Source of the DNA: Paenibacillus sp. FSL R10-2782
GTDB taxonomy: Bacteria > Bacillota > Bacilli > Paenibacillales > Paenibacillaceae
DNA length: 64,000 nucleotides
Assembly: GCF_038592985.1 (NCBI RefSeq)
Contig: NZ_CP151951.1
Span: 4,938,501-5,002,500 of the forward strand
Direction of reading: 5' to 3'
In this document: positions 36,893 through 52,988 of the stretch, piece by piece
Layout of the letters: each line of letters begins with the position of its first letter
Position numbering within the stretch: the first letter of the stretch is position 1
Position numbers and translations under genes: made by a program
The notes under the pieces: model-generated
Databases searched by the model: none
Told to the model about the DNA's origin: nothing
What the model saw: the letters and a program-made list of their open reading frames with translations, nothing else

Positions 36893-37603
36893 TTACGACT
36901 CCCTCGTCCAATAATACCAACTTTCCATTTTTTGAATTCTATAACCACACTTTATATATAAATTCATTGCATTATAATTTCTACCTTGTGTCGAAACTAA
37001 TAGTTGATCAATTGGCCTGGATTCAAGAAACACTTTTAACTCTGTTAGTAACTTCGTGCCTATTCCATGGCTTTGATGCTTTAGATCGACTCCCAAAAGA
37101 CCGATCCTTGCTTCTCTGTCGTTTAAATTTTCTTTAATTGTTACGAATCCAATAATCTCTCCATCCATCGTAAGAACAAGGCAATAATCATCAAACGAAC
37201 CCAGAATCGACTTTTCCACCCATAAATTATATAATTTATCCACTTTTTCTGCATCAAAAATATGCTGATAACAAGAATATCGACTATCTTTAAATAATCC
37301 TGTCAGTTTATTTTTCAATAAAGGAAAGTCATGCTCCGTGGCAAATACAAGGGAACTTTCATTTTGTGCATTACTACCTATTCTAGTCTCAAATGTTACT
37401 TTAATATCAGCCATATGAAAATTTTCATTTTCCAGAAATTGAATAGTGGTTATATCATCAATTTTACAAAGCGCTTGTATAAAGTCCAATTGATTCTTTT
37501 CTATAAAATGTTGAAGATATGAGCTTGTAACTGGGGAAGTAGTTGATACTTCGGCCATATTCATAGCAAAAAAAATAGAATCCCAATGCAAAAGCCTCAG
37601 CAT
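36893..37603 (-). CDS. GNAT acyltransferase, WecD/RffC-like (dTDP-4-amino-4,6-dideoxyhexose N-acyltransferase)
   Basis: A 236-residue protein. The N-terminal half is divergent and the C-terminal GNAT fold (about 140-235) has the acyl-CoA-binding motif HQSHGIGTKLL and the closing YIKCGYRIQKMESWYYW, which is typical of TDP-fucosamine acetyltransferases. The adjacent upstream gene encodes a WecE/RffA-like transaminase, its usual partner, with a single base between them. Predicted reaction: N-acylation of the 4-amino group of a dTDP-4-amino-4,6-dideoxyhexose. GGAGGGG precedes the ATG. The acyl donor could be acetyl-CoA or the island acyl carrier protein. Last gene of the island. Confidence 0.75.
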   Translation of the reverse strand: MLRLLHWDSIFFAMNMAEVSTTSPVTSSYLQHFIEKNQLDFIQALCKIDDITTIQFLENENFHMADIKVTFETRIGSNAQNESSLVFATEHDFPLLKNKLTGLFKDSRYSCYQHIFDAEKVDKLYNLWVEKSILGSFDDYCLVLTMDGEIIGFVTIKENLNDREARIGLLGVDLKHQSHGIGTKLLTELKVFLESRPIDQLLVSTQGRNYNAMNLYIKCGYRIQKMESWYYWTRES

Positions 37604-37604
37604 T

Positions 37605-38768
37605 CTAGACCCCTCCGACTAAAGAAGAACTATACTGTAAAAAGAAATTATAAATACAGTCTACAATCCGATTTATATCAGACTCCTCAATATTAAAATA
37701 GAGAGGTAATCTAATTAAACGTTCGCTCTCTCTAGTTGTGTAAACATCCCTACCAGTAAATGAACTATGTTTTAACCCTGCCTCGGAGCTATGAAGCGGT
37801 ACATAATGAAAAACAGCCATAATTTCATGTCTTCTCAAAAAATTCAATAGTTCAGTCCTTATTTCTAAATCTCTAACTTTAATATAAAATATATGAGCAT
37901 TATGAGCATTGCCCAGAGGTATACAAGGTATGTCGATTAATTTTTCTTCACTCAGAGGTTTTAATCTATTAAAATATAAATTCCAGCTAGCCAATCTATT
38001 TTTTGTAATCATCTCCGCGGCTTCAAGTTGTGCCATTAAAAAGGCAGTATTCAGTTCACTAGGGAGGTAGGACGAACCTATGTCAACCCAAGTATACTTA
38101 TCTACCTGACCTCTAAAAAATTTGGATCTGTTTGTCCCTTTCTCACGTATTATTTCAGCCTTCTCCACAAATCGGTCATCATTGACCAACAAAGCACCAC
38201 CTTCTCCGCAATGTACATTTTTGGTTTCGTGAAAGCTGATACATCCTAAATGACCAATAGTCCCAAGTTTTCTCCCTTTATATTCACTAAGAATCCCTTG
38301 TGCTGCATCCTCTACAACTACCAAATTGTATCTATTCGCCAAATCTAAAATTTTATCCATATCACAAGCTACTCCAGCATAATGCACTGGGACAATTACT
38401 TTTGTTTTATCTGTGATCGCATCTTCTATAAGATCTTCATCAATATTCATAGTATCTGGTCGGATATCCACGAACACAATCTTAGCTCCTCTTAAAACAA
38501 AGGCATTAGCAGTGGATACAAATGTATAAGATGGCATGATAATTTCATCCCCCTGTTGGATATCCAAGAGAATAGCAGCCATCTCCAGAGCATGTGTGCA
38601 AGAAGTCGTTATTAGTGTTTTTTTCACATTAAAAGTTCTATCAAACCAATTTGCACATAACCGCGTAAATTCTCCATCACCCGAAAGATGTCCACTAGAA
38701 AATGACTCTTTGATATACTCTCCTTCTTTACCTACGATTGCCGGTACATTGAAATTTATCATTTTCAT
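37605..38768 (-). CDS. DegT/DnrJ/EryC1 aminotransferase, WecE/RffA-like
   Basis: A 387-residue PLP enzyme. The PLP lysine is in ISFHETKNVHCGEGGAL, a context characteristic of WecE/RffA (dTDP-4-amino-4,6-dideoxygalactose transaminase); the Asp and Gln cofactor contacts are in VVEDAAQG. Other family stretches are MPSYTFVSTANAFVLRGA and DIGSSYLPSE. It should aminate dTDP-4-keto-6-deoxyglucose to a 4-amino sugar, Fuc4N or Qui4N. The dTDP-glucose pathway genes (rmlA, rmlB) are not in the window and must be elsewhere. A second in-frame ATG at 38762 is also possible as start. Confidence 0.85.
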   Translation of the reverse strand: MKMINFNVPAIVGKEGEYIKESFSSGHLSGDGEFTRLCANWFDRTFNVKKTLITTSCTHALEMAAILLDIQQGDEIIMPSYTFVSTANAFVLRGAKIVFVDIRPDTMNIDEDLIEDAITDKTKVIVPVHYAGVACDMDKILDLANRYNLVVVEDAAQGILSEYKGRKLGTIGHLGCISFHETKNVHCGEGGALLVNDDRFVEKAEIIREKGTNRSKFFRGQVDKYTWVDIGSSYLPSELNTAFLMAQLEAAEMITKNRLASWNLYFNRLKPLSEEKLIDIPCIPLGNAHNAHIFYIKVRDLEIRTELLNFLRRHEIMAVFHYVPLHSSEAGLKHSSFTGRDVYTTRESERLIRLPLYFNIEESDINRIVDCIYNFFLQYSSSLVGGV

Positions 38769-38807
38769 CTCTCATTTCAGCAAATTATGTGGTGAAGCAC
38801 GTGCAGC

Positions 38808-40424
38808 TTAATAAAAGTGTGGTGATTTAGTCATAGTCTCTATAACCTCTTTCATAACCTTCTCACTGTCAAAGATTTCACTCGCCCTGCTTATTGCTAC
38901 AGATTTTTCGTGTTCCCTAAATACGGGGTTTTCCCAATTTTTTATAAATGTATTCACATCATCAAAACTGTTAATATGATAGTGCTCTCCTGCCGTGTGA
39001 GCAACATCCCCGAAGGCATATGTAAAAACGGGTAGCCCTTGCCTTAATGCAATAGCCGCAGAAGTACCACCTCCAGATCGAAATGTGTTCAAATACGCGT
39101 CACACACTTCATAAACAGCGGCTAAATCCTTTTGAACTCCGACATGAACAGATTGTTTATCAAGAGTGATATATCGATTCGTTATCTTATTATAATTTTT
39201 AAGTTCACCTATAAACATAATGCGGGTATGATCATTACATTTCAGCAAATCGTCCAGCTTTGTTAAAAAAGAATCGTCTAGCTCCGTATCAAGCCGATTA
39301 CCTACTATGGCCAATACAAAATTGTCCTCGCCTAACCCCCAATACTCTCTATGCATTTTAGTCTGTGGAGGCGTATATTTATAAGTAAACACACTCTCAA
39401 TAACAGATTCCCGAGACCTGCTTAATTCTTCTAGGGTGTTCAAATCTGCTGTGTTTACTTTTCTGGGCAAAATAGAAAATGTGCTCTCTGAGATGGGGAG
39501 ATCATAAGCTAATGGCAGAGTGATAACAGGCACAAAATTAGAAAATAGGTCGGCGCTTACATTTGAGCCTGAGACAGATAAAACAAAAAGCGGCTTTAAA
39601 TGTAATATCATTTGGATTAGCTCTGATATCTGGGCACCATTTGGCATTTCCTTTTTACATTGAAAGAATGGAATACTTAAATCTTCATACACTAGCTTTT
39701 CAGTTTGATTGTACCCCTCAACATAGTTAGATAGGACAGCTCCGAAATAAGGCGTGGTTATAGATCTTGGCATGTCTGCGGTATTGATAAGAAAAATATT
39801 TTTTTTGAGATTATATAAAGCTTTGCAATGATCTAGCGCTACTTGTGTTGGACTATGTAACATAGAAAGCATCTGTCCCGCTACAACAACTACAAGATCT
39901 TGGTTGCGTTCTTCATAAGGAATCCAATTCGCCTCGTTTGCAATTTGATTATTAAAATACTCAAAATATTTTCGATATATCCTTCTCAGTCTGTTAGTAT
40001 TTTCCTCCGTTTTTAATTTAGGAGTAGTAAAAAGAAAGCTCGTAATTTGCCAGTAAACAAAATGTAGCACATCTATTCTTACTTCTTTTTCTATAGATTC
40101 AAAAATATCATCCAAAAACTTCTGATCCTTTGTACAGGTGAGTAAAAATGACGTTAAATATAGCCCCCAATTCTTATAATCCGATATCAATTGTTCGATT
40201 TCAGTTACTATCACTTGACGACTATTTGAATCTATACTTTCAAAGTTTCCAATTAATTTGGTTAGTTCATGGTCCAGTAATTTGTATACTTCCACATTTG
40301 ATAATTTATCATTCGATAGTATTTTTTTTAATTCAAGCGTTTCTTTGGAACTTCTCATTAGGGACCTCTTTTCATTAGTATTAGGGTTTACTGTGGGGAC
40401 CACGTTCAGGATTAAAAGCCTCAC
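38808..40424 (-). CDS. predicted GT-B glycosyltransferase of the flagellar glycan island
   Basis: A 538-residue soluble protein not assigned to a named family. The first 190 residues are helical. The C-terminal 200 resemble a GT-B donor domain: LAIVGNRLDTELDDSFL, RIMFIGELKNYNKI, then VHVGVQKDLAAVYEVCDAYL and RSGGGTSAAIALRQGLPVFT, the usual place of the nucleotide-sugar contacts. Related proteins are often labelled SPINDLY or O-GlcNAc transferase-like. Two starts are credible: GTG at 40424 after AAGGGGGG, used here, and ATG at 40358 after AAAGAGGT. It may extend the glycan on flagellin. Confidence 0.6.
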   Translation of the reverse strand: MRLLILNVVPTVNPNTNEKRSLMRSSKETLELKKILSNDKLSNVEVYKLLDHELTKLIGNFESIDSNSRQVIVTEIEQLISDYKNWGLYLTSFLLTCTKDQKFLDDIFESIEKEVRIDVLHFVYWQITSFLFTTPKLKTEENTNRLRRIYRKYFEYFNNQIANEANWIPYEERNQDLVVVVAGQMLSMLHSPTQVALDHCKALYNLKKNIFLINTADMPRSITTPYFGAVLSNYVEGYNQTEKLVYEDLSIPFFQCKKEMPNGAQISELIQMILHLKPLFVLSVSGSNVSADLFSNFVPVITLPLAYDLPISESTFSILPRKVNTADLNTLEELSRSRESVIESVFTYKYTPPQTKMHREYWGLGEDNFVLAIVGNRLDTELDDSFLTKLDDLLKCNDHTRIMFIGELKNYNKITNRYITLDKQSVHVGVQKDLAAVYEVCDAYLNTFRSGGGTSAAIALRQGLPVFTYAFGDVAHTAGEHYHINSFDDVNTFIKNWENPVFREHEKSVAISRASEIFDSEKVMKEVIETMTKSPHFY

Positions 40425-40456
40425 AATAGCCCCCCTTCTCCCCTTTATTCACATCA

Positions 40457-41359
40457 CTACAGATTATACGATGATGTCCCTAGAGGAGGTAGACGTATAC
40501 AGTCTATTCTATCCATCCAAAACTCTCTGTTGTCAGAAATCTCCCCTTCTCTTGTACTAAAAGCACCCACAAATCCATTCTGTACTAGAACAGGAGTTAG
40601 TTTGTCCAACATTAACTTTTGGTTAACACCACCACCAAAGGCAGGCGTGTACCAAATCGGATTTATACCTAAAACACTCTTCATCCAATCTTTACAAGGA
40701 CCGATTTCAATATCATAAAATTCCTGTGGATCGCCATTATAAGGAATATGATTATGAGCATGCACACCTATAGTCATTCCTGCCTGGCTCATTTCGACTA
40801 TTTCTTCTGTACTTATATAAAAATCATTTATAAATTTATACTTATCGGGAAACAAGGACTGAAAAATAGATTCGAGAAAGATAGTTGCTTCGGTAACAGA
40901 TAATTTAAAATTAAGCATAAATTTATTGTATCTACGTAGTTTATTCTGTTCATACTTATAGATTTGACTTTCCTCTTCCACACCGCACGTATCATACATC
41001 CCACTCAGTAATTCCCATATCTCTTCATCAGATTTGAAAGAGAGCACCGTGTGAACCAAATGAACTAATGGAATGTTTCCTGTGATGTGTGGACCAGACA
41101 TGATTGTAAAATATGCAGGAATTCCTTTTTTTTTCAAAATGTCAAAGGCAAACGTGTATTGATCTTTTGTTCCATCATCAAACGTTAGTACACACCATGG
41201 TTCCGAATTGAACTTATCAATCTCGTCCAACGAGATAATTCGATGTGTCTTGCTAATTAAATCTAGCTGTTCTTCAAAGTCATGGGGATGCATGGGAACA
41301 ATACCATCCCATCCCTTCTTCTCACGTACATAGTGGTACATCGCAGCAATATTACCCAA
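40457..41359 (-). CDS. NodB-type polysaccharide deacetylase
   Basis: A 300-residue protein. The start is set at TTG 41359, one base after the previous stop, with AAAGGGTGGA overlapping that gene's end; this puts IAAMYHYVREKKGWDG at the N-terminus, as usual in the family. NodB motifs are VLTFDDGTKDQ (catalytic Asp and metal Asp) and VHAHNHI (metal His residues). IPAYFTIMSG is the core strand. It would remove an N- or O-acyl group from a carbohydrate. Being cytosolic with no signal peptide, it probably acts on a nucleotide sugar or intermediate rather than on wall polymer. Confidence 0.8.
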   Translation of the reverse strand: MGNIAAMYHYVREKKGWDGIVPMHPHDFEEQLDLISKTHRIISLDEIDKFNSEPWCVLTFDDGTKDQYTFAFDILKKKGIPAYFTIMSGPHITGNIPLVHLVHTVLSFKSDEEIWELLSGMYDTCGVEEESQIYKYEQNKLRRYNKFMLNFKLSVTEATIFLESIFQSLFPDKYKFINDFYISTEEIVEMSQAGMTIGVHAHNHIPYNGDPQEFYDIEIGPCKDWMKSVLGINPIWYTPAFGGGVNQKLMLDKLTPVLVQNGFVGAFSTREGEISDNREFWMDRIDCIRLPPLGTSSYNL

Positions 41360-41360
41360 T

Positions 41361-42503
41361 TCAATTCCACCCTTTAGGAAGTGGCCAAATGTTCGGTCGA
41401 TCCATATCTCCATCAGTTTTAACAAGATATATATCATTCACTTCCGTATTTTGAAAAGCACCTTCATTATTTTTAATTTTCCATACAAAATTAATGGGAT
41501 TAACACGATGCCGAAAAGGCTGGAACAAACCTGCCAATCCACATTCCGTTGGAGTGTAGTCTATATTTTGTTTTTTAAATCCAATAGATTCCAGGACATG
41601 TTCTAAACGATTTGAACTTAACTGATAATCTGCCGCAGCACACCCTTGATCTCGGGCCCATGATAAGACTCCAGCTATCATCTCGTTCAAGCGATGATCT
41701 GCTATTCCTTTCCAAACATCAGCATTAACTGGAATGATTTCTATAATCCTTAACACTTTTGTGCCATGGATGTTCTCATCGGGAGCATGTACTCGATCTA
41801 GTCGTGCAACTACAATCCCTTCAGAAGTGGAATCACCGAAAAATAAATACTTATAGCCCGCGCTATTTATATACCTCCAATCCCAAAAGGAGGCGCTACG
41901 ATACTGAGAAAGTGAAAAACGATGTTGAACACTATTAATGTATAATTGCTCTAACTCCTCACCCGTAATATTGAGTATAGGGCTGTATGAATGTATCAAT
42001 CTTTCTTCAACACCCGCTATCCATTGCTCAATGCTCGCTTGATCAACCGGGTCCTTTAGTAAATTCACATAACCGTTCACATCGAGCGGGATGACGTAAC
42101 GGTTCAAATGATCTGAATACGAATACCCCATACGCTCATACATAGGTACCACTTGAAAATTACAGCCTAAAGTCAAACACACCGGATTATACTTCTCTGC
42201 TTCTTTCATAAGCATAATTCCCAAGCCACTGTTTTTATACTTTTCTGACACAATCCACATTGCGAAACTGATGCCTTTATATTGTTCTCCGTTAGAACTA
42301 TACTCACCAGGAATGACCCCAAGGAATCCCTCAATGCAGCCATTGTCGACCAGAAGCAGGGATTCTGCTAAACCGTCCTCATCAACCCGATACTGCCAAT
42401 CGAACAATTCTTTATTATAAATGGCATGCTCTGAAGACCAATTAATTCTCATAAATGCAACCAGCGATTCATAATCAGAATCTTGATATTTTACAATTTC
42501 CAA
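41361..42503 (-). CDS. GNAT family N-acetyltransferase, Eis-like two-domain form
   Basis: A 380-residue protein with an N-terminal GNAT domain (EGFLGVIPGEYSSNGE, MWIVSEKYKNSGLGIMLMKE, NFQVVPMYERMGYSY) and a second half that looks like a partial GNAT repeat (AADYQLSSNRLEHVLESIGF). The start is TTG at 42503 with AAAAGGAGGGCG upstream. It sits between the acyl carrier protein and the deacetylase, so transfer of an acyl group from the carrier protein to an amino sugar is an attractive inference. The acyl donor and acceptor are not visible from sequence. Confidence 0.75.
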   Translation of the reverse strand: MEIVKYQDSDYESLVAFMRINWSSEHAIYNKELFDWQYRVDEDGLAESLLLVDNGCIEGFLGVIPGEYSSNGEQYKGISFAMWIVSEKYKNSGLGIMLMKEAEKYNPVCLTLGCNFQVVPMYERMGYSYSDHLNRYVIPLDVNGYVNLLKDPVDQASIEQWIAGVEERLIHSYSPILNITGEELEQLYINSVQHRFSLSQYRSASFWDWRYINSAGYKYLFFGDSTSEGIVVARLDRVHAPDENIHGTKVLRIIEIIPVNADVWKGIADHRLNEMIAGVLSWARDQGCAAADYQLSSNRLEHVLESIGFKKQNIDYTPTECGLAGLFQPFRHRVNPINFVWKIKNNEGAFQNTEVNDIYLVKTDGDMDRPNIWPLPKGWN

Positions 42504-42562: not shown

Positions 42563-42796
42563 TTAATTATGAATACTATTCAAAATATGCAAAATGCTTT
42601 GCACTGAATCTATATTAGCTATTTCATCAATGGGAATAGACACATTAAAAATAGCTTCAAGTTCCATCACTAAATTCAATTGATTGAGCGAATCCCAATG
42701 TTCAAAGTCACTTTTTACCGATTCCAACGTCACTTTTTCGACAGGCACATTCATAATTTTAGATATTATTGATTGAACCAACTCAAATTTATTCAA
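42563..42796 (-). CDS. acyl carrier protein
   Basis: A 77-residue carrier protein counted from TTG at 42796. The 4'-phosphopantetheine attachment site is Ser36 in HWDSLNQLNLVMELE. It begins inside the stop region of the FkbH-like gene (TTG overlaps TGA) with AAGGAG eight bases upstream, so the two are coupled; the alternative GTG at 42805 would sit on the ribosome site. Divergence from housekeeping AcpP and its place beside fkbH point to a dedicated carrier for a special acyl or glyceryl unit. Confidence 0.9.
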   Translation of the reverse strand: MNKFELVQSIISKIMNVPVEKVTLESVKSDFEHWDSLNQLNLVMELEAIFNVSIPIDEIANIDSVQSILHILNSIHN

Positions 42797-44460
42797 AAAG
42801 AGCACTCCTTAAGTAAGATATGATGAGGTAGAAATATCTCTCCTAAATTTAATTCATTGTTTTTAGATACATCCCTATACTTCTTTGAAATAAAATCATA
42901 AAAAGGTTTATTCTTTTCCGTCTTTACATACGTAGCCTTAATATTATGAGGTAAAAAATGCTTGGTAACTAAATAAAGCATTGCTTCCTCAATTCCCTTG
43001 CCCATGACACGACAACTCATAACAAAATCATGGATTTCAGCCTGACCTCCATCATCAGATGAAACCGAAATCAGTCCTGTATAACCTGCATTTCCAAATT
43101 TGTCTTCCACTTCAAATAAGATTGCATGATTATTCGGTAGTTCACTCCAGGACCAATACTCTTCAATCGTAAACCTGCGGGTCGCCATGTTAAACTGATT
43201 CGTTTTATTCATTAACTGTACAGCCCGTGTTAGCAATAATTTATCTAATTTATGTGGAGTCAGCTTAATTTCAAGTGAGTGGAGCCATTCTTCCAATGAT
43301 CCTGCGTTTAACTTTATCGACTCCCGCTTTTGCTCCTGTTTGAACCAGTCTGTTCGTTTACGATCCTCCAACGTTATAGCAGGAGTCTCAAAACAATCCA
43401 GTTGGCTAATAAAAACTGGATATTGAGTTACATCTACAGGTAGGTCAGGTACATATATTTCAGGAAGAGCTTGCTTGATACGATCTCTTTCAGATGGATT
43501 ATCATCCAAAAACACAACAGATTGCAGACCTAGATTGAGTTCTTTTACAATTTCAACAACATTGGCAGCCTTGTCGTTCCAGTTGATTCGAATTGAAGAA
43601 AAATCCTTTTTTTTCAGAATCATTTCCGGATGCTGTTCTATCATTTCTAGTGCTATCGGTTCGCTGTTTTTACTGCAAATAGCCAGAATGACACCTCGGT
43701 TACTCAATCTTTGCAATTCTTGCTGAAAAAGCTTGAAACTCTCACCGACGGGATCAATCCCCCCCAGTTTGATGTTGTCAATGCCATCGTCGCCAATAAT
43801 GCCACCCCAGAGCGTATTATCCAGATCACAGATAATTAGCTTTTTACTTTGTCCGTATAGACCACTAACGATTGATTTTAGCTCATTGGATACAAAGAGA
43901 AAAAAATCACGCGAGAACTGAATTTTCCCAAGTGCATACATTTTAGCATCGTAACTTTTTTGTTGGATTGCAGTATACCAATAGTTAGAATCAAGAATAA
44001 TAACATGATCATGCTTTTGTAGTCGTTCTGAAAGACGTAGATTCATTTGCATAAGTACATTACTTAATCCTACATTGTGCTTTAATGTCATCGATTGTAT
44101 CCAACGGTAATGAGGTGGGAGGGACCAAGACACAACAAAAATATGTTTGGCTTTTCCCTCAGCCCTGATAATAAGCTCGCAAAATTGATCGACTTCATTA
44201 AGAACATCACCGATATCAATTTCCTTATATTCCAGCAGTTTATTAAAAGAAGGAATTACTTTCTCAGGACTTGTCCATAAAAGCAATATATCCTTTTTTT
44301 CCGACCATACGGAGTGATCAGAATTCATAAGAACCTGATTCACTTGGTTATAAGGGGCCTCTGTCACTTCTAACGTCAAATCCTGAAAAGGTCCCTCTAG
44401 AAAACGAACCATCGGATTTAGATTAGAATCAGAGAGGATTAATAGTTTATTTTTTCTCAT
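42793..44460 (-). CDS. FkbH-like HAD superfamily IIIC protein
   Basis: A 555-residue protein. The first 200 residues resemble the SGNH-like N-terminal region of FkbH-like proteins. The HAD domain has the nucleophile motif ICDLDNTLWGG (Asp212, Asp214) and VVFLDDNPSERD. The C-terminal part (about 400-550) is GNAT-like (FVMSCRVMGKGIEEAMLYLV). FkbH relatives load a glyceryl unit from 1,3-bisphosphoglycerate onto an acyl carrier protein in polyketide pathways, and others appear in sugar-modification clusters. Coupled to the acyl carrier gene, so an ACP-bound hydroxyacid donor is likely. GGGGGAGAAAATAA precedes the ATG. Confidence 0.85.
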   Translation of the reverse strand: MRKNKLLILSDSNLNPMVRFLEGPFQDLTLEVTEAPYNQVNQVLMNSDHSVWSEKKDILLLWTSPEKVIPSFNKLLEYKEIDIGDVLNEVDQFCELIIRAEGKAKHIFVVSWSLPPHYRWIQSMTLKHNVGLSNVLMQMNLRLSERLQKHDHVIILDSNYWYTAIQQKSYDAKMYALGKIQFSRDFFLFVSNELKSIVSGLYGQSKKLIICDLDNTLWGGIIGDDGIDNIKLGGIDPVGESFKLFQQELQRLSNRGVILAICSKNSEPIALEMIEQHPEMILKKKDFSSIRINWNDKAANVVEIVKELNLGLQSVVFLDDNPSERDRIKQALPEIYVPDLPVDVTQYPVFISQLDCFETPAITLEDRKRTDWFKQEQKRESIKLNAGSLEEWLHSLEIKLTPHKLDKLLLTRAVQLMNKTNQFNMATRRFTIEEYWSWSELPNNHAILFEVEDKFGNAGYTGLISVSSDDGGQAEIHDFVMSCRVMGKGIEEAMLYLVTKHFLPHNIKATYVKTEKNKPFYDFISKKYRDVSKNNELNLGEIFLPHHILLKECSF

Positions 44461-46577: not shown

Positions 46578-46583
46578 CTCATT

Positions 46584-47222
46584 TCATCCCTTATCCTTAT
46601 AGGTTTTTATTACTTTGGCCGGACAACCCACAGCTATGACGTTCTCTGGCAAATCGCGGATGACACAAGAAGCAGCACCAACGATGGTATCGCACCCTAC
46701 ACGAACACCAGGTATAAGACTTGCACCTATTCCGATATGAGCACAGCACCCAATCTGAACTCCGCCTGCCATATGTACACCTGGGGAAATGTGTACAAAA
46801 TCTTCTATCCGGCAATCGTGGTCTATGGTAGCTGCCGTATTAATTATGGTGTGCTCTCCAACGTAGGCGTCAGCATTAATAACTGAATTAGGCATGACAA
46901 CCGTCCCCTCGCCGATAGATGCGCTCGGTGCGATTACAGCGCTCGGGTGAGCAGCAGTTCCAAATTGGACTGTTGCTGCTTTTAATTGACTCACAATTTT
47001 CATTCTGATTGTATTGTCTCCGATTGCTACAATGAACAGCGCTCCGGGATACTGAGATAATAGTTTGTCAACCTGATTAATGTCCCCCAAGACTGGCAAC
47101 CCGTTCCATTCTTCTTCTTTACAAAAGTCATCAAGAACTCCAATGATTTTTTCACCACAAGATCGTAAAATATCAACTATGACCTTGGCATGTCCTCCTG
47201 TTCCAAAAACGATATAGCTCAA
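46584..47222 (-). CDS. legH: LegH/NeuD-type sugar N-acetyltransferase
   Basis: A 212-residue left-handed beta-helix acetyltransferase of the NeuD/PglD family. An N-terminal nucleotide-sugar-binding domain (IVFGTGGHAKVIVDILRS) is followed by hexapeptide repeats (GEGTVVMPNSVINADAYVGE, HDCRIEDFVHISPGVHMAGG). The catalytic His is in ATIDHDCRIEDF. It would acetylate the 4-amino group to give UDP-N,N'-diacetylbacillosamine. The start is TTG at 47222 with AAGGAGGG upstream. It sits between legC and legG as expected for the pathway. Confidence 0.88.
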   Translation of the reverse strand: MSYIVFGTGGHAKVIVDILRSCGEKIIGVLDDFCKEEEWNGLPVLGDINQVDKLLSQYPGALFIVAIGDNTIRMKIVSQLKAATVQFGTAAHPSAVIAPSASIGEGTVVMPNSVINADAYVGEHTIINTAATIDHDCRIEDFVHISPGVHMAGGVQIGCCAHIGIGASLIPGVRVGCDTIVGAASCVIRDLPENVIAVGCPAKVIKTYKDKG

Positions 47223-47234
47223 GGCCGACCCTCC

Positions 47235-48374
47235 TTAATAGGTAATTGTCTTTTGAATAAGCTGCTTCGACTTGGATGTTCGTTTCAATATATCCACGAT
47301 ATGAGAGCTTGTGTTATCTCTACTGTATATATTGTCAGACGCTTCAACAATTTGCTGGAAAGGTTCAGACATTGCATACTCCAATGCAGACATCAGTTCG
47401 ATCTCATCGGCTTTAATATCTATTGTGTTTGCAGAGCGCTCCCTACCTGTCTGACGGGTCCCAATGTTAATGACTGGAACATGAAAGGAAGCAGCCTCGA
47501 TAATCCCCGAAGAGGAATTTCCAATGAATACTTTTGCATTTTTCAACATTGTCAGATAATCAAGTTGCTCAAAACTGGTTACAAGATGCATCTCACCTCT
47601 TGCAGCAAAACGATTATATACATCAACGATAGCATCAGCTCCAGCATCCGAATTAGGCATCACACAAATAACCTCATTCTCTCCAGTCAAAAGAACTTCC
47701 AGCATCTTGCCAAGCTTGCTCATATCCACCTCTTCCGTGGTGACAGGATGGTAAGCAAATAACACATAATCGTTATCTATATCCAGATCGTATTTACGTT
47801 TTGTTTCCTCTAGATCAGGCAAGGATGTATTCATCATCGTTTCAATTCTCGGAGCACCGACTACATGGATTCTCCATGGTTCTTCCCCGAGCCGGATTAG
47901 ACGCTCTCTGCTTCCATTTGTCGCCACGAAATGAATGTGAGCCAACTTACTGATCGCATGCCGAACAGACTCATCAATCGTGCCGGATACTTCGCCACCA
48001 TGTAAATGAACCAGCGGAATGTTCATGTGAGAGGATACAATCGCGGCTGCAAGCATTTCTCCCCGATCTCCCAGAACAACGACGAAATCTGGCTCCAAAG
48101 CTTCTATGGATTGCGTCATGCCCATGATTGCTATTCCGATAGAGCGAGACATATTGGCATGAGTTGACCCTTGCAGCAGACAGTCTACCTTAGCAGATAC
48201 ACGAAATCCGTCCTTATGAATAGCGTCCAATGTATATCCGTACTGTGGGGATAAATGCATTCCTGTCACCAACAGATGGAGCTCCAGAGCATGTTCATCC
48301 TCAATAGCCCGCAAAACCGGGTAATATATCCCATAATCAGCCCGTGTTCCGGTAATCACCAATACTTTCTTCAT
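47235..48374 (-). CDS. legG: UDP-N,N'-diacetylbacillosamine 2-epimerase (hydrolysing)
   Basis: A 379-residue NeuC-type enzyme that inverts C2 and removes UDP to give 2,4-diacetamido-2,4,6-trideoxymannose. Motifs are ITGTRADYGIYYPV, VVVLGDRGEMLAAA, LHGGEVSGTIDESVRHAISK and FIGNSSSGIIEAASF. Its presence, rather than a PseG-type hydrolase, is the main sequence reason to call the pathway legionaminic and not pseudaminic. The ATG overlaps the legI stop by four bases (ATGA), so translation is coupled. Confidence 0.93.
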   Translation of the reverse strand: MKKVLVITGTRADYGIYYPVLRAIEDEHALELHLLVTGMHLSPQYGYTLDAIHKDGFRVSAKVDCLLQGSTHANMSRSIGIAIMGMTQSIEALEPDFVVVLGDRGEMLAAAIVSSHMNIPLVHLHGGEVSGTIDESVRHAISKLAHIHFVATNGSRERLIRLGEEPWRIHVVGAPRIETMMNTSLPDLEETKRKYDLDIDNDYVLFAYHPVTTEEVDMSKLGKMLEVLLTGENEVICVMPNSDAGADAIVDVYNRFAARGEMHLVTSFEQLDYLTMLKNAKVFIGNSSSGIIEAASFHVPVINIGTRQTGRERSANTIDIKADEIELMSALEYAMSEPFQQIVEASDNIYSRDNTSSHIVDILKRTSKSKQLIQKTITY

Positions 48375-49399
48375 TGCACATCATCCCATGACAACAAATA
48401 GTCTTCATGTACATCCTTTAAAAGCTGCTTGCCAACTAAATCAGCATAATATTTAGGAGCTATTCCCGTTCCTGGGCGTTTGATGACTAGATCTTCTTGA
48501 GTTATCGTCTGGCCTGCCTTTTTAGGTGCTGCCATCACAACACTCTTTCTTGCAACAGCTCTGGTGCTTTCCTCAGAGGGCATACACCTTTTAGTCCCAT
48601 CCCCCAGAGCCTGCTCTACATTACGAATCGCAACAACCATTCTGGAGAAATCAACAGGCTCCAGTGAAGCCTTATGGTCAGGACCTGGAAGTGATCGATC
48701 CAACGTGAAATGCTTTTCAATAATTCTCGCTCCCAATGCTGAAGCCGCTACAGCAATCTCAATACCAGCAGTGTGATCCGAATATCCTGTGACCTTCCCA
48801 AAAGCTTTAGAAATTGTATTCATAGCCAACAAGTTAACATCTTCCAAAGGTGCCGGATAGTCGGAAGTACAGTGTAGCAATAATACTTCACTTTTTTTGA
48901 ATGCTTGTAATGATTCTCCAATTTCATCCAGATTAGACATTCCGGTAGATAAAATAATTGGACGCTCATAGCGATCGAGCTTCTGAAGAAAGGGAATATT
49001 GTTCATATCTCCCGATCCAACCTTGAATGCATCGATATCAATTGAATTCAGAAAATCGGCACTTTCTTCATCAAAAGGTGTAGAGAGAAAGTCTATTCCT
49101 TTATCCTCACAATACTTTTTCAACAGAACAAAATCATCAAAGCTTAATTCCAGCTGTTTTAACATGTCCAGTTGGCTCTCGGTGGAGTTCGTATTTTCTG
49201 TCTGGTAATCAGCCTTTTGGGCGTACTTGGTTACCAGTTTTTCGCTTTTAAAGGTCTGGAACTTCACCGCATCGGCACCGCACAAAATCGCCTGATCAAT
49301 ACACTCAAATGCAAGCTCCAATGATCCGTTATGATTTACCCCCACCTCTGCAATAATGTAGATGGAATGGCTGTCGTTATTTGATAAAAAGCTTTGCAT
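48371..49399 (-). CDS. legI: N,N'-diacetyllegionaminate synthase (NeuB family)
   Basis: A 342-residue synthase condensing the trideoxymannose with phosphoenolpyruvate. The NeuB TIM barrel includes EVGVNHNGSLELAFE, DAVKFQTFKSEKLVTKYA, PIILSTGMSNLDEIGESL and GYSDHTAGIEIAVAA with EKHFTLDRSLPGPDHKASLE, which holds the metal and substrate contacts. A C-terminal SAF domain follows (GQTITQEDLVIKRPGTGI). AACAGGAGGGAG precedes the ATG. Assignment to legionaminate over sialate rests on the neighbouring legB, legC and legH genes. Confidence 0.93.
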   Translation of the reverse strand: MQSFLSNNDSHSIYIIAEVGVNHNGSLELAFECIDQAILCGADAVKFQTFKSEKLVTKYAQKADYQTENTNSTESQLDMLKQLELSFDDFVLLKKYCEDKGIDFLSTPFDEESADFLNSIDIDAFKVGSGDMNNIPFLQKLDRYERPIILSTGMSNLDEIGESLQAFKKSEVLLLHCTSDYPAPLEDVNLLAMNTISKAFGKVTGYSDHTAGIEIAVAASALGARIIEKHFTLDRSLPGPDHKASLEPVDFSRMVVAIRNVEQALGDGTKRCMPSEESTRAVARKSVVMAAPKKAGQTITQEDLVIKRPGTGIAPKYYADLVGKQLLKDVHEDYLLSWDDVQ

Positions 49400-49427
49400 G
49401 TTATACTACTCCCTCCTGTTACGGGGA

Positions 49428-50135
49428 TCACTTGTGATTGGATTCTCTCCAAAAAAACTCTGCCATCTTCAAATCAAACTCGTCATCTATGTCAACTGAT
49501 CGTTCTTTAGGCATAATATAACCGCAATTATGACGTCCAACCAGGGTGCTATGATTCATCAACAGATCTCTTTTTACGATATATATTGCTCCGTTTAGAA
49601 CATACAATTCCTTTAGATCCTGTCTCCTTAAATGCTCCCTTTCACCTTCCAAGTAAGGCGTTAGTCGTCCGTTATCCATTTCTCTTAGCAGGTAGGGTTG
49701 AACTTCTGATAAAGCGACACTTTGTAGTGAATCAGCCTGATTACTCGAAAATATTGTATACGCCTCTTCAATATCCATAGCATTTCGCAATGGAGATGTG
49801 GGCTGCAGCAGTATAATAACATCAAAAAATTGATCCAGCGTCTGTTCATAAAATTCAACAGCATGCTTCAATACATCAATGCTTTTGGCCTCATCGGTAG
49901 CCAGCTCAGCAGGCCTTATAAATGGAACTGCTGCGCCAGCTTTACCTGACACATGAGCAATCTCTGCACTATCCGTTGTAACTACAACTTCGTCTACACA
50001 GCTACTGTTCAGCGCTGCCTCAATACTATATTGAATGAGCGGTTTATCATGTAACAATCTAATGTTTTTACCAGGTAAACCTTTTGATCCACCGCGCGCA
50101 GGAATAATCGCCAGACATTTATGATTGCCCATCAT
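49428..50135 (-). CDS. legF: CMP-N,N'-diacetyllegionaminate cytidylyltransferase (NeuA family)
   Basis: A 235-residue enzyme activating the nine-carbon sugar with CTP. The nucleotide-binding motif is AIIPARGGSKGLPGKNIRLL, followed by VVTTDSAEIAHVSGKAG and LLQPTSPLRNAMDIEEA, with the metal Asp near the C-terminus in RSVDIDDEFDLKMAE. The start is placed at the tandem ATGs 50135/50132, inside the end of legB, because the upstream extension (MKKMAWVLHGCC) is only the legB tail in another frame. It makes the donor for the Maf transferase. Confidence 0.92.
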   Translation of the reverse strand: MMGNHKCLAIIPARGGSKGLPGKNIRLLHDKPLIQYSIEAALNSSCVDEVVVTTDSAEIAHVSGKAGAAVPFIRPAELATDEAKSIDVLKHAVEFYEQTLDQFFDVIILLQPTSPLRNAMDIEEAYTIFSSNQADSLQSVALSEVQPYLLREMDNGRLTPYLEGEREHLRRQDLKELYVLNGAIYIVKRDLLMNHSTLVGRHNCGYIMPKERSVDIDDEFDLKMAEFFWRESNHK

Positions 50136-51150
50136 ACAGCACCCATGTAAAACCCAAGCCATTTTTTTCAATCAGCTCCCGAATGGCTGTCTGAAAGATC
50201 TGCGGTGCAGTCTTCGAAGAATACTCTTGAGGAATCGCCTTTCGGAAACCTTCATATTCCTGCTCTGTTGTATGAAATGACGAAGGGATAATATACATTT
50301 GTCCATTCTCCAGTGCTCTTTCAGATTCCTCAAGCGTCATGAGTTCCTCATATAGCTTCTCACCCGGCCGGATTCCGGTCTCTATGATTTCTCCACCATA
50401 GGGTTTACCAACTGCCTCTTCATATGAATCAACCAAGCATTGGGCCAAATCCGTAATTTTGAGAATCGGCATTTTTAGTACAAATACTTCTCCGCCTTGC
50501 GAATAGTGCGCCGCATCTACGACCAATTGAGCGGCTTGAGGAATAGACATCATAAACCGAGTCATCTCTGCATGTGTGACCGTCACCGGTACCCCTTTAG
50601 CAATCTGATCACGGAATAATGGAATAACGGAGCCCCTGGATCCCATAACATTTCCAAAGCGGACACAAGAAAAGATGGTACGTTTGCTCCCTTTATACAA
50701 GTTGGCGGCAGAAATTAAACGTTCTGATAGCAGCTTCGTAGCACCCATTGTATTCGTTGGATTTACCACTTTATCTGTGCTGATGGCTACTACTTTTTCT
50801 ACATTATGCTCAATAGCCGTCTCTATCAGATTTTGTACGCCAATAACATTCGTTTTCACTGCTTCCATAGGGTTATACTCGCATGCAGGCACATGTTTGA
50901 GAGCAGCAGCATGAAAAATATAATCCACATCCTCCATAGCATAACTCAATCTTTGCTTGTCCCTGATATCACCGATCAGATAACGGATATTCGTATATTC
51001 TTTTAATTCTTGCTGCAGATCAAACTGCTTGCTCTCATCCCTGCTAAAAATCCGCAGAGCTTTGGGATTATAGGATAAAATATTACGTACAATTTCACTT
51101 CCAATCGAGCCTGTGCCGCCCGTAACCAATACAATCTTGTTAGTAAACAT
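50119..51150 (-). CDS. legB: UDP-N-acetylglucosamine 4,6-dehydratase, LegB/PseB-like
   Basis: A 343-residue short-chain dehydrogenase. NAD binding is in VLVTGGTGSIGSEIVRNI. The active site reads STDKVVNPTNTMGATKLL, with the TDK-type triad of CapD/FlaA1/PseB relatives. FHAAALKHVPACEYNPMEAV and VRFGNVMGSRGSVIPLF are family-typical. It makes the 4-keto-6-deoxy intermediate. PseB also inverts C5 and LegB does not; sequence alone cannot settle this, but the downstream genes require the non-inverted product. GGAGGTCATT precedes the ATG. Confidence 0.88.
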   Translation of the reverse strand: MFTNKIVLVTGGTGSIGSEIVRNILSYNPKALRIFSRDESKQFDLQQELKEYTNIRYLIGDIRDKQRLSYAMEDVDYIFHAAALKHVPACEYNPMEAVKTNVIGVQNLIETAIEHNVEKVVAISTDKVVNPTNTMGATKLLSERLISAANLYKGSKRTIFSCVRFGNVMGSRGSVIPLFRDQIAKGVPVTVTHAEMTRFMMSIPQAAQLVVDAAHYSQGGEVFVLKMPILKITDLAQCLVDSYEEAVGKPYGGEIIETGIRPGEKLYEELMTLEESERALENGQMYIIPSSFHTTEQEYEGFRKAIPQEYSSKTAPQIFQTAIRELIEKNGLGFTWVLYDGQS

Positions 51151-51179
51151 AATGACCTCCGGAGTGTAAAACGATTAAT

Positions 51180-52988
51180 TTATATATCTTTATGGACCAC
51201 TGGTTCGCTATCTGTTTTTTTATCTAAACGGCGAATCGATTCTGAAAACATTTCTTCAAGTATTGGGATTTGTGTTGTGATATCCTCTAGCAGCTTACCC
51301 AGATGCTCATAGATTAGATCAGACTTACGCGTCAACTGATGTTCTGTTACAATCACAGGGAGCACCTGATCAAAACGCGCAATTTCGATAGGCATAATGG
51401 ACTCAAATATAGGTGAGAACCAATCCCTGTTGGCAATCAATCCCCACATCTGCTCTATAGACTCCACCATACTTTGAGCCTTTGCTGGTTTAGTCCGGCT
51501 AAATTCGCGTATTTTTTTCATCAGCTTATGAATTGCTGCAATCTCAGAACGTACATTGTAAAGATCTCCGAGTGTCGCTATCAGCTTATCTCTGACATCC
51601 TGCACCTTATTCATATCAGCAGCAATATTTATTTTGTTTATCAAATCGGCAATTGCATCATGATCAACAGATTCTGATGCTAACAATTTATACATCTCTT
51701 CCATCGGTTCGTATGGAGCTCCCTCAATCACTGCACCATTGCGAGTTGAATTGATAAATTCAATCCTTGGAAGTGCCTTAATCAGATTTTCGAGTCCATT
51801 CTTCATCAGGGAGAAACTTTCGTCTGTAGTATTGTATGTCCCCTTTACATTAAGCACTTTTTTAGGTGCTTCCTGCACTATCTTATCTGTAGTTTCGGCT
51901 GCAAAATGTTCAATTCCATCTGCGTAGAATTTGTTATCAGGGAACGACAAATCCTGACCTGCAAGTATGATCCGTTTAGCCCCTAGATATGCCGCTGCTT
52001 GAATAGCCGTTCCTGCAACCGTTTCTGTAGGGGATATAAAGAGTTCCTCTTTACTGAGTCCAAAGAAATATTGTGATACAGCATCACTTTTCATAATACT
52101 ATGGATTTTCCCTGCACAGTTCTGATCAGAGATTTCATAATAGGAGGAGGAAGTAAACAATAAAGGCTGCTCTCTCGTTTCAGAGGAAGCAAAGATCTTC
52201 TTATTGACTGAATGGCCATCCATTATTACAGCAAGGTGAGGCTGTATTCCATGCTTTATTAATGCCTGAATGCTGGAACCTGCTGAAATAATCAGTGCGT
52301 GAGGTCGTAATTTTTTCAGCCATTCGATATCTTCCTGTAAAGATGGGCCTGATGATACAACAATCACCGTTGCACCCTCAAAAGCGTGAAAAAGCCGCTC
52401 AATGGAAGGAGTGTATAGTACATCAGATAGATGATATAGAAAATTTCGAGTCCATTCTTCTCGAAAACGATTCTCTGTATGTTTATCTACCAAAAAGCTC
52501 TGGCGGTACTCCTGAAATTTTTCCTTTACTTCACGTAGCGTACTCATATCATCTGATAAATACTTACGCAGCGCAATAAACACTAAATCTTCCATCATGT
52601 AACTACTCAGCATATGAAACATCATATTGAGCTGAGAATCACCAACGGATAGCCAGTACAAATTGGGATGCCCCAGCAAAAGACTGAGGTCATACTCCGT
52701 CACAGCCTTCCGAAAAAGCCGCTCATCCGGCTCGTATACAAACAACCAGTGATTCGGGTACAATTCGAGGAGATCAACAATGCTAAGTCCCCTTTCAAAT
52801 CCATATACAAAAAGGATCTTTCCGTTTCCAATTGCTCCCTTAACAGCATTAAGCCAAGCCGTATCCCTTTCAAAGGGCTCAGTAAACAAAGGTATAGATA
52901 AATCATCATTCGGCAAACTATTGATTTGGGTTGCAACATGAGGAAACCTCTGCTCTAGAATTGTATGGTTTATTTGTAGTTGAGACAA
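51180..52988 (-). CDS. maf: Maf-type motility accessory factor, flagellin nonulosonic acid transferase
   Basis: A 602-residue protein with the MAF_flag10 (DUF115) domain in the middle, about residues 200-380: TVIVVSSGPSLQEDIEWLKK, ALIISAGSSIQALIKHGIQP, HLAVIMDGHSVNKKIF, and AAAYLGAKRIILAGQDLSF. Flanking N- and C-terminal helical regions are usual. Maf proteins transfer CMP-activated pseudaminic or legionaminic acid to Ser/Thr of flagellin before export. The start is TTG at 52988, with GGTGGT six bases upstream; the ATG at 53009 has no ribosome site. It is the first gene of the glycan operon, next to the fliD-fliS-fliT operon, and has a sigma-D-like -10 upstream. Confidence 0.9.
   Translation of the reverse strand: MSQLQINHTILEQRFPHVATQINSLPNDDLSIPLFTEPFERDTAWLNAVKGAIGNGKILFVYGFERGLSIVDLLELYPNHWLFVYEPDERLFRKAVTEYDLSLLLGHPNLYWLSVGDSQLNMMFHMLSSYMMEDLVFIALRKYLSDDMSTLREVKEKFQEYRQSFLVDKHTENRFREEWTRNFLYHLSDVLYTPSIERLFHAFEGATVIVVSSGPSLQEDIEWLKKLRPHALIISAGSSIQALIKHGIQPHLAVIMDGHSVNKKIFASSETREQPLLFTSSSYYEISDQNCAGKIHSIMKSDAVSQYFFGLSKEELFISPTETVAGTAIQAAAYLGAKRIILAGQDLSFPDNKFYADGIEHFAAETTDKIVQEAPKKVLNVKGTYNTTDESFSLMKNGLENLIKALPRIEFINSTRNGAVIEGAPYEPMEEMYKLLASESVDHDAIADLINKINIAADMNKVQDVRDKLIATLGDLYNVRSEIAAIHKLMKKIREFSRTKPAKAQSMVESIEQMWGLIANRDWFSPIFESIMPIEIARFDQVLPVIVTEHQLTRKSDLIYEHLGKLLEDITTQIPILEEMFSESIRRLDKKTDSEPVVHKDI

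What the first reader, a model, noticed from the sequence alone, without database searches (positions are those of the whole stretch)
36893..52988. Composite flagellin glycosylation island: legionaminate pathway plus an ACP/FkbH/TylF-decorated amino-sugar branch
Seen: one minus-strand run of 15 tightly spaced genes with maf first, then legB-F-I-G-H-C, then a TylF-type methyltransferase, FkbH-like protein, dedicated acyl carrier protein, GNAT, NodB deacetylase, a GT-B-like enzyme, and WecE- and WecD-like enzymes. Known: Maf proteins attach nonulosonic acids to flagellin, and Pseudomonas syringae flagellin carries an N-acylated, O-methylated viosamine made with similar functions. Inference: the filament carries legionaminic acid and an N-hydroxyacyl or N-glyceryl, O-methyl 4-amino-4,6-dideoxyhexose, possibly as one glycan. 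I know of no described Gram-positive flagellin glycan combining these, but could not search.
Basis: partly seen in the sequence, partly recalled or inferred. Interest (0 to 1): 0.82.

Follow-up and report, generated by a model that had tools for sequence, protein, structure and literature searches.

The report
Two-module flagellin sugar-decorating gene island
A soil bacterium (Paenibacillus terrae or a very close relative) carries, next to its flagellin genes, a 15-gene island that probably coats the flagellum with a sialic-acid-like sugar; the unusual acyl-carrier genes in it most likely re-acylate that sugar itself, not the second sugar as first thought, which gives a testable candidate for a sugar modification whose enzymes are poorly known.

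Summary
The island is real: 15 co-directional genes (36893-53009, minus strand) between fliT-like and cspA-hpf-secA, with terminator-like hairpins at both ends. The genome is Paenibacillus terrae-like.

Comparison splits them. Module A (tylF-fkbH-acp-GNAT-nodB, or variants sharing ACP, GNAT and NodB) occurs in eight other genomes; in seven, nonulosonic-acid synthase genes lie in the same fetched stretch; a WecE orthologue was found in 0 of 8. Module B (gt538-wecE-wecD, partly broken in two) follows legionaminate-type cores without module A in three genomes. Both were seen together only in two genomes of this species; P. kribbensis may hold both.

Best reading: Maf transfers a legionaminic-acid-type sugar; module A swaps one N-acetyl for an ACP-borne acyl, by FkbH chemistry glyceroyl, possibly methylated; module B separately makes and attaches Fuc4N(Ac). 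Precedents are C. jejuni di-O-methylglyceroyl-pseudaminate and Tannerella Pse5Am7Gra, for which a 2019 review found no reliable enzyme candidate. A Bacteroidia fkbH-acp-wecE locus speaks against. Specificities and flagellin modification are untested. New variant of a known kind.

The parts
53070..53098 (-). terminator-like hairpin between the fliT-like gene and maf (11 bp stem)
   Evidence: read
51180..53009 (-). maf, flagellin nonulosonic acid transferase candidate
   Evidence: PF01973 132 bits; orthologue in 15 of 75 genus genomes
50119..51150 (-). UDP-GlcNAc 4,6-dehydratase, PF02719 (motif STDKVVNPTNTMGATK)
   Evidence: PF02719; PDB 6bwc, 3vvb, 2gn4, 5bju; motif
49428..50171 (-). legF-like CMP-nonulosonate synthetase
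   Evidence: PF02348; PseF model 177 bits, below cut-off 206
48371..49399 (-). legI-like (NeuB family) synthase
   Evidence: TIGR03569 461 bits > 400
47235..48374 (-). legG-like (NeuC family) hydrolysing 2-epimerase
   Evidence: TIGR03568 441 bits > 236
46584..47222 (-). legH-like (NeuD/PglD family) N-acetyltransferase
   Evidence: TIGR03570 230 bits > 161
45432..46577 (-). legC-like 4-aminotransferase
   Evidence: TIGR04181 374 bits, cut-off 420; best PDB 1o61/4ztc
44492..45337 (-). module A: TylF-family O-methyltransferase
   Evidence: PF05711 77 bits; PDB relatives mycinamicin 3''-O-methyltransferase, NovP
42793..44460 (-). module A: FkbH-family acyl loader (HAD motif DLDNT)
   Evidence: TIGR01686 273 bits > 147; motif
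42563..42805 (-). module A: acyl carrier protein (WDSL phosphopantetheine site)
   Evidence: PF00550; motif
41361..42503 (-). module A: tandem-GNAT N-acyltransferase with C-terminal D-x-D-x-DRPN
   Evidence: PF00583; 71 homologues; motif; model pLDDT 94, N-myristoyltransferase-like outline
40457..41437 (-). module A: NodB-family N-deacetylase (TFDDG, HAHNH); the listed start overlaps the GNAT gene by 77 bp and the true start may lie downstream
   Evidence: PF01522 52 bits; motifs
38808..40424 (-). module B: glycosyltransferase gt538, helical N-terminal domain plus GT-B
   Evidence: homologue passes PF13692; model pLDDT 90; Foldseek SPY/OGT/BshA TM about 0.3-0.55 over the query
37605..38768 (-). 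module B: WecE, dTDP-4-amino-4,6-dideoxygalactose transaminase
   Evidence: TIGR02379 639 bits > 435; PDB 4piw 537 bits
36893..37603 (-). module B: WecD-like N-acyltransferase
   Evidence: PRK10975 155 bits, cut-off 219
36601..36634 (-). terminator-like hairpin after wecD (15 bp stem)
55894..56700 (-). flagellin, presumed acceptor (about 256 aa from the ATG at 56664)
   Evidence: PRK12804 269 bits, cut-off 352; sequence read

Best explanation
The island is a bounded transcription unit that decorates flagellin in three separable layers. (1) Core: the PF02719 dehydratase, LegC, LegH, LegG, LegI and LegF make a CMP-activated legionaminic-acid-type nonulosonic acid and Maf puts it on flagellin. 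(2) Module A edits that nonulosonic acid: NodB removes an N-acetyl group (N5, from the GlcNAc C2 amide, is the likelier site because LegH still serves N7), FkbH loads a C3 glyceryl unit on the dedicated ACP, the tandem GNAT transfers this acyl to the freed amine, and TylF O-methylates the product. Expected product: N-(glyceroyl or methyl-glyceroyl)-legionaminic acid, or methyl on the sugar ring. (3) Module B is independent: with RmlB encoded elsewhere in the genome, WecE makes dTDP-Fuc4N, the WecD-like enzyme N-acylates it (probably acetyl), and gt538, a helical-domain GT-B with an OGT-like outline, puts it on flagellin or on the first sugar. Shown here: gene content, boundaries, conserved motifs, and the separate recurrence of A and B. 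Inferred: every enzymatic specificity, the site and nature of the acyl, and that flagellin is modified.
For: Module A without B in the fetched stretch: G308 nodB-gnat-VOC-acp-fkbH-tylF at 58-69% identity; G582 and G606 nodB-gnat-VOC-acp-fkbH, one or two small ORFs from fliS-fliD-flaG and then leg-type genes; G482 nodB(26%)-gnat-VOC-acp-fkbH-legF-legG-legI with maf-like and fliS-like genes nearby; G020 tylF-gnat-acp-fabG-AMP ligase-luxE-luxC-nodB directly after legC; G387 gnat-Gfo/Idh-AMP ligase-acp-nodB directly after legC; G614 tylF-nodB-gnat-acp-fabG-AMP-luxE-luxC beside secA; L069, a Paludibaculum MAG, fkbH-acp-gnat-nodB before legG-, legF- and legI-like genes. WecE query in these 8 genomes: orthologue in 0 of 8 (best 147 bits). 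gt538 was searched genome-wide only in the family, so for G308, G020, G387 (no hit). Module B without A: G390, G217, G018; FkbH at E<=1e-50 in none of these three. In 394 family genomes TylF (E<=1e-40) hits 11 and gt538 (E<=1e-20) hits 11; only G000 and G063 are in both lists. NulO synthase: NeuB model beats PseI in 7 of 7 scanned besides the window (G308, G582, G482, G020, G387, G606 partial ORF, L069), over the NeuB cut-off in 4 of 7. The D-x-D-x-DRPN motif is in the GNAT of 8 of 8 of these loci, of L144 and of P. terrae, and in no ORF of 250-480 aa in the 51 other loci among L085-L139. G252 pairs a NodB with a formyltransferase inside a Leg-type island, the same deacetylate-then-reacylate logic. 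PMC3068675 proposes such an exchange at N5 for C. jejuni. RmlB over cut-off in own genome.
Against: A Bacteroidia locus (L082) has fkbH-acp directly before a WecE of 53% identity, so FkbH/ACP can go with a WecE sugar elsewhere. In P. terrae the two modules are contiguous and could have been wired together. 3 of 7 Bacilli cassette genomes, and the L069 genome, do hold weaker DegT-family aminotransferases (27-38% identity, at most 147 bits; one lies in the G308 stretch itself), so another amino sugar cannot be excluded there. Over 18 Leg-type islands (one per species) A occurs in 3, B in 4, both in 1; expected 0.67, Fisher p = 1.0: too few to show link or avoidance. The WecD-like protein is below its cut-off, so its acyl donor is open. 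TylF-family relatives in the PDB methylate sugars, and TylF also sits alone inside two pseudaminate-type operons (G380, G382), so it may methylate the ring. Curated models do not fix the product as legionaminic acid: LegC, LegF and LegB models are below cut-off. The G308 stretch shows no flagellar genes in 20 kb, G614's cassette is not beside nonulosonate genes there, and L069 is not a flagellar locus. PMC13317340 (figure legend passage) says Cj1296-Cj1310 of C. [quoted passage not shown]
Confidence: 0.6

Rival explanations
1. One reading: FkbH, ACP, GNAT and TylF supply an N-hydroxyacyl/N-glyceryl, O-methyl group to the WecE-made 4-amino-4,6-dideoxyhexose, as one viosamine-like branch.
For: Contiguity of the eight genes in P. 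terrae and in the second genome of the species; L082 has fkbH-acp-wecE; P. kribbensis GNAT and gt538 proteins report the same longest contig length, so both may sit together there too (neighbourhood not seen); the WecD-like protein misses its cut-off.
Against: 0 of 8 other genomes with the cassette gave a WecE orthologue; wecE-wecD-gt538 stands without the cassette in G390 and (broken) G217, and gt538 (broken) with the start of wecE in G018; each module has its own acyltransferase; WecE predicts galacto, not viosamine.
Confidence: 0.2
2. Module A modifies something other than the flagellar nonulosonic acid, for example a wall or surface polymer or a protein, and is only parked in this locus; the hpf-secA neighbourhood is an insertion hotspot.
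For: G614 carries the cassette beside secA away from nonulosonate genes; L069 is a non-flagellar locus; very long ORFs lie beside the site in G026, G062, G025 and G007.
Against: In 7 of 8 other genomes nonulosonate synthase genes lie in the same fetched stretch, directly adjoining in G020, G387 and G482; in G582 and G606 only one or two small ORFs separate it from fliS.
Confidence: 0.12
3. The FkbH/ACP unit loads a longer or different acyl (hydroxybutyryl-like) and acts like the ACP/FabG/LuxE/LuxC sets of Aeromonas and enterobacterial islands.
For: G020 and G614 have ACP, FabG-like, AMP ligase, LuxE, LuxC with the same GNAT and NodB families (G614 by similarity to G020); PMC7874193 and PMC4875605 passages describe the same kind of set in Gram-negative islands.
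Against: Between fkbH and nodB in G000, G308, G582, G606, G482 and L069 there are only acp, GNAT and (four of them) a VOC protein; a short-chain dehydrogenase lies elsewhere in the G308 stretch. FkbH is known for glyceryl loading (recalled).
Confidence: 0.15

Closest known systems
Campylobacter jejuni flagellin di-O-methylglyceroyl-pseudaminic acid (Cj1295 region)
   Same: Nonulosonic acid on flagellin with an N-linked methylated glyceroyl; proposed N-deacetylation then acyl swap (PMC3068675: abstract, discussion, one table passage); fkbH-domain gene cj1302 in the island (PMC7099621, passage).
   Different: There the proposed hydrolase is aminopeptidase-like Cj1295 and the nonulosonate is Pse; here NodB, a tandem GNAT and a NeuB-type core. 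[quoted passage not shown]
Tannerella forsythia Pse5Am7Gra S-layer O-glycan
   Same: An N-glyceroyl nonulosonic acid (PMC6388019, passages).
   Different: Not flagellar; [quoted passage not shown] Its genome was not examined here.
Aeromonas Group II flagellin islands
   Same: ACP, 3-oxoacyl-ACP reductase, AMP synthetase, luxE, luxC beside nonulosonate genes (PMC7874193, passages), as in G020.
   Different: Pseudaminate core; acyl source differs from FkbH.
Clostridium butyricum flagellar islands with dTDP-Fuc4N genes
   Same: Gram-positive flagellar island predicted to use Fuc4N; another strain has Leg and Pse (PMC13317340, passages).
   Different: 'fkbh' and 'acyl carrier' occur 0 times in its main text; Fuc4N and Leg are in different strains there.
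Pseudomonas syringae modified viosamine island
   Same: 4-amino-4,6-dideoxyhexose with acyl and methyl on flagellin (recalled).
   Different: No nonulosonate core there (recalled); transaminase here is WecE-type.
Bacillus subtilis sps legionaminic acid pathway
   Same: Legionaminic acid pathway in Bacilli (PMC7439481, abstract and outline only).
   Different: Serves the spore crust, not flagellin.

Membership tests
Maf-dependent flagellin glycosylation island | maf gene next to flagellin/fliD/fliS genes | tested here: met
Maf-dependent flagellin glycosylation island | CMP-nonulosonate gene set in the same unit | tested here: met
   terminator-like bounds
Maf-dependent flagellin glycosylation island | one site with contents that vary between relatives | tested here: met
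   cspA on the far side in 13 of 14 fetched genus maf loci (G018 ends with its contig) and fliT on the near side in 7 of 7 whose upstream stretch was held; Leg- or Pse-type core and differing cargo
Maf-dependent flagellin glycosylation island | flagellin actually glycosylated | not testable with these tools
   needs mass spectrometry
legionaminic acid pathway | retaining 4,6-dehydratase | tested here: inconclusive
   TIGR04180 LegB not met (70 of 475 bits); Met replaces Tyr in 8 of 8 Leg-type dehydratases read (of 19 such islands) against Tyr in 11 of 11 Pse-type, but CapE, an inverting enzyme (recalled), has Met too (alignment)
legionaminic acid pathway | LegC-type aminotransferase over curated cut-off | tested here: not met
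   374 bits, cut-off 420, though it is the best model; so I say legionaminic-acid-type, not legionaminic acid
legionaminic acid pathway | NeuC-, NeuD- and NeuB-family enzymes, not PseI | tested here: met
   TIGR03568, TIGR03570, TIGR03569 over cut-off; PseI 282 below 340
WecE/WecD Fuc4NAc pathway | WecE transaminase over cut-off | tested here: met
   639 > 435 bits
WecE/WecD Fuc4NAc pathway | WecD acetyltransferase over cut-off | tested here: not met
   PRK10975 155 < 219, TIGR02382 106 < 195
WecE/WecD Fuc4NAc pathway | RmlB in the genome | tested here: met
   511 bits at C1:4840483
C. jejuni-type methylglyceroyl cassette | FkbH, ACP, methyltransferase, N-deacetylase and N-acyltransferase functions together with nonulosonate genes | tested here: met
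   by predicted function only
C. jejuni-type methylglyceroyl cassette | same protein families (aminopeptidase-like, which I recall as DUF4910, and AAC(3)-like N-acyltransferase) | tested here: not met
   no DUF4910 or Antibiotic_NAT hit in the 15 window proteins; both occur in the deltaproteobacterial maf locus L071
P. syringae viosamine type | VioA-type transaminase | tested here: inconclusive
   transaminase is WecE-type; no VioA sequence was compared

The most novel reading that the evidence does not exclude
[acyl loader]-ACP-tandem GNAT(DRPN)-NodB is a mobile N-acyl-exchange cassette for nonulosonic acids, spread over at least Bacillota and Acidobacteriota. In its FkbH form it makes N-glyceroyl (optionally O-methylated) legionaminic acid on Gram-positive flagella, and it would be the first identified enzyme set for N-glyceroyl nonulosonic acids, with P. 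terrae adding an OGT-like Fuc4NAc transferase as a second, independent flagellin glycan.
Probability: 0.4. Interest if true: 0.7.

Novelty: new variant of a known kind. Interest (0 to 1): 0.55.

Why it matters
N-glyceroyl and methylglyceroyl nonulosonic acids have been seen in C. jejuni and T. [quoted passage not shown] forsythia. A five-gene cassette from a soil bacterium that can be expressed and assayed makes that question directly testable. The modular comparison also shows how flagellar glycans diversify: one genomic site, a swappable core, and interchangeable acyl sources feeding one NodB/GNAT pair.

Tried and rejected
Single acylated amino-sugar branch: tested by separate recurrence of the modules and by looking for WecE in 8 cassette-bearing genomes; demoted. 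Reading the Met/Tyr swap as proof of a retaining dehydratase: rejected because CapE (3vvb) also has Met in the alignment and is inverting (recalled). FkbH relatives from the genome-contig scan (27 loci, 26 besides P. terrae): tblastn of window genes showed fkbH with or without acp in most; L069 also has nodB- and leg-like genes and on re-reading a DRPN GNAT, 1 of 26; L065 has a 30% tylF-like stretch; L063, L071 and L082 were read; the rest were not followed. The plasmid search with 6.5 kb of the window found no match. Literature searches for FkbH with flagellin (one paper), FkbH-glyceryl-O-antigen (none), Cj1302-Cj1298 (none) and nonulosonic-ACP-deacetylase (one) gave no report of this cassette; the P. 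alvei flagellin paper (PMC5110117) was not held. Repeats within the island look like chance. Of the LegC matches (132 of 394 genomes) I fetched 20 further loci, best first; 9 lie by flagellar genes and 11 showed none (two of these 11, L136 and L139, are short contigs); the rest were not examined. G414 (L144) was left out of the cassette counts because its contig ends beside the GNAT gene.

Full report
What is there. The window lies at G000:C1:4938501-5002500 of a one-contig 5.6 Mb genome. A genome-contig scan returned a P. terrae PIC167 contig with FkbH 99% identical and the island in the same order (L058), so the organism is P. terrae or very near it. Fifteen minus-strand genes run maf-dehydratase-legF-legI-legG-legH-legC-tylF-fkbH-acp-GNAT-nodB-gt538-wecE-wecD, with family assignments. 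Upstream are a fliT-like gene, fliS, fliD, flaG and a short flagellin; downstream cspA, hpf, secA. Terminator-like hairpins at 53098-53070 and 36634-36601 bracket the unit; the scan found no more such sites than shuffles (8 against a mean of 10.5), so this rests on position and stem length. G+C of the last eight genes is 0.30-0.40 against 0.40-0.45 for maf and the leg genes and 0.45 for the window, consistent with later acquisition.

Core sugar. The core is NeuB/NeuC/NeuD-type, not PseI-type. The dehydratase is not LegB of the TIGR04180 family but PF02719, closest in the PDB to 6bwc, which I recall as Pen of Bacillus thuringiensis. Its active-site stretch has Met where pseudaminate-type islands have Tyr: 8 of 8 Leg-type read, against 11 of 11 Pse-type. 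LegC is closest to 1o61/4ztc, recalled as PglE of C. jejuni. Together these suggest a UDP-bacillosamine-like route to a legionaminic acid type, but curated cut-offs for LegC, LegF and LegB are missed, so the exact stereochemistry is open.

Comparative test. In the genus, Maf orthologues (E <= 1e-118) occur in 15 of 75 genomes; close FkbH orthologues (E of 0, 99-100%) only in G000 and G063, weaker FkbH matches in 21 more. Fourteen maf loci were fetched besides the window. cspA lies on the far side in 13 of 14; fliT on the near side in 7 of 7 held. The site holds either a Leg-type core (G000, G063, G061, G026, G018, G062, G020, G056) or a Pse-type core (G025, G007, G046, G013, G010, G011, G022), with different cargo. 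Family searches of 394 genomes: TylF in 11, gt538 in 11, overlap 2 (G000, G063, one species); FkbH at E <= 1e-50 in 52, but at E <= 1e-200 only in G000, G063 and G308. Of the 59 weaker FkbH rows, 44 lie in open frames of 1853-6718 aa, which look like polyketide or peptide synthases (inference).

Module A. G308 has nodB-gnat-VOC-acp-fkbH-tylF at 58-69% identity next to hpf-secA, with a NeuB-type synthase in the stretch and no gt538/wecE/wecD there. G020 and G387 place tylF-gnat-acp-...-nodB and gnat-...-acp-nodB directly after legC, with FabG-like/AMP ligase/LuxE/LuxC or an AMP ligase in place of FkbH. A search of 259 Bacilli genomes with the GNAT alignment hit 7, G000 and G020 among them; the five new loci show fkbH-acp-VOC-gnat-nodB close to fliS-fliD-flaG and leg-type genes in G582 and G606, the same beside legF-legG-legI with maf-like and fliS-like genes in G482 (its NodB only 26% identical, but PF01522 81 bits), the LuxE type in G614, and a contig end in G414. 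So the constant part is ACP + tandem GNAT + NodB; the acyl source is interchangeable; TylF is optional (3 of the 8 non-terrae cassettes: G308, G020, G614). The GNATs keep D-x-D-x-DRPN in 8 of 8, and no ORF of that size in the 51 other loci among L085-L139 has it. Four aligned NodBs keep TFDD and H-x3-H. The GNAT model (pLDDT 94) is a tandem GNAT whose best Foldseek matches are N-myristoyltransferases, TM about 0.57: compatible with transferring an acyl to an amine, no more.

Is module A tied to WecE? No WecE orthologue was found in any of the 8 genomes (best 147 bits at 29% identity, against 537 bits for window WecE with PDB 4piw). Weaker DegT-family aminotransferases (27-38%) do occur in G308, G582, G482 and the L069 genome, one of them in the G308 stretch itself; the one in the L069 stretch scores best with PseC and is below every cut-off. 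Conversely gt538-wecE-wecD follows legC without module A in G390 and, with broken genes, in G217; G018 has a broken gt538 and the start of wecE at a contig end. gt538 also follows Pse-type cores without an intact wecE in G157, G379 and G010. Among 18 Leg-type islands, one per species, A is in 3, B in 4, both in 1: no statistical association, small numbers. Against this reading, L082 (a Bacteroidia contig) has fkbH-acp-wecE in line.

Mechanism. In C. jejuni 11168 flagellin carries pseudaminic acid with 2,3-di-O-methylglyceroyl on N5, and the authors propose that Cj1295 removes the N5 acetyl so the new acyl can be put on (PMC3068675, discussion read). Module A has the parts for this: deacetylase (NodB), glyceryl-ACP maker (FkbH and ACP; chemistry recalled), N-acyltransferase (GNAT) and methyltransferase (TylF). 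A deltaproteobacterial maf/flagellin locus (L071) has an analogous set with DUF4910 and an AAC(3)-like protein. A NodB/formyltransferase pair inside the G252 Leg-type island fits the same exchange logic. The N-glyceroyl substitution of T. forsythia Pse5Am7Gra had no reliably identified enzyme at the time of PMC6388019 (passages read).

Module B. WecE predicts dTDP-Fuc4N; RmlB is elsewhere in the genome. The WecD-like protein is below its cut-off and its donor is open. gt538 models as a helical N-terminal domain plus GT-B (pLDDT 90); the first 50 Foldseek rows are mostly SPY, OGT and BshA structures at TM about 0.3-0.55 over the query, so direct transfer to flagellin is possible but weakly supported. 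A 2026 Clostridium paper predicts Fuc4N in flagellar islands and says it had not been reported in flagellar glycans before (PMC13317340, passages).

Verdict.

Noticed in passing
L005:10508-12331 (-) = G000:C1:5089507-5091330: A second MptE/Maf-like protein (607 aa) about 87 kb beyond the window end, next to a 1203-aa protein with 6 Big_5 and 3 SLH matches; the paralogue is in 7 of 75 genus genomes and might glycosylate that surface protein.
   Followed up: partly
L125:8044-9773 (G252) and L124:7056-9861 (G029): NodB deacetylase paired with a formyltransferase inside a Leg-type flagellar island (in pieces in G029): suggests N-formyl nonulosonate by the same deacetylate-reacylate logic.
   Followed up: partly
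L105:6307-6708, L140:10760-11179, L141:10531-11034, L142:10465-10872: A Glyoxalase_4 (VOC) protein sits between acp and GNAT in 4 of 4 other Bacilli FkbH-type cassettes but is absent in P. terrae and in L069; possible acyl epimerase.
   Followed up: no
L069:9755-19079: Acidobacteriota (Paludibaculum sp. MAG) locus with fkbH-acp-GNAT(DRPN)-nodB and NeuC/CMP-synthetase/NeuB-like genes outside a flagellar region: the cassette crosses phyla.
   Followed up: partly
L087:11409-12353, L091:3610-4704: DUF2920 proteins (a family also in C. jejuni flagellar islands per PMC7099621 passage) in Paenibacillus islands.
   Followed up: no
L106:8558-9460, L107:8552-9427: TylF orthologues (55-58%) alone inside pseudaminate-type operons, hinting that TylF methylates the nonulosonate ring.
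   Followed up: partly
L071:1915-13696: Deltaproteobacterial maf/flagellin locus with two DUF4910 proteins, methyltransferase, FkbH, ACP and an AAC(3)-like/DUF4910 fusion: a C. jejuni-like methylglyceroyl set.
   Followed up: partly
L082:9839-12767: fkbH-acp-wecE in line in a Bacteroidia polysaccharide-type locus, the best case for FkbH/ACP serving a WecE sugar.
   Followed up: partly
L087:67-9378, L089:3-8258, L090:9011-19993, L092:64-8838: Very long open frames (2751-3660 aa), surface-protein-like by eye, on the opposite strand beside the island site in G026, G062, G025 and G007.
   Followed up: no
L086, L088, L098, L114: Island decay: dehydratase split in G061, gt538 broken in G018, maf split in G056, maf/gt538/wecE/wecD broken in G217, indicating rapid turnover at this site.
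   Followed up: partly
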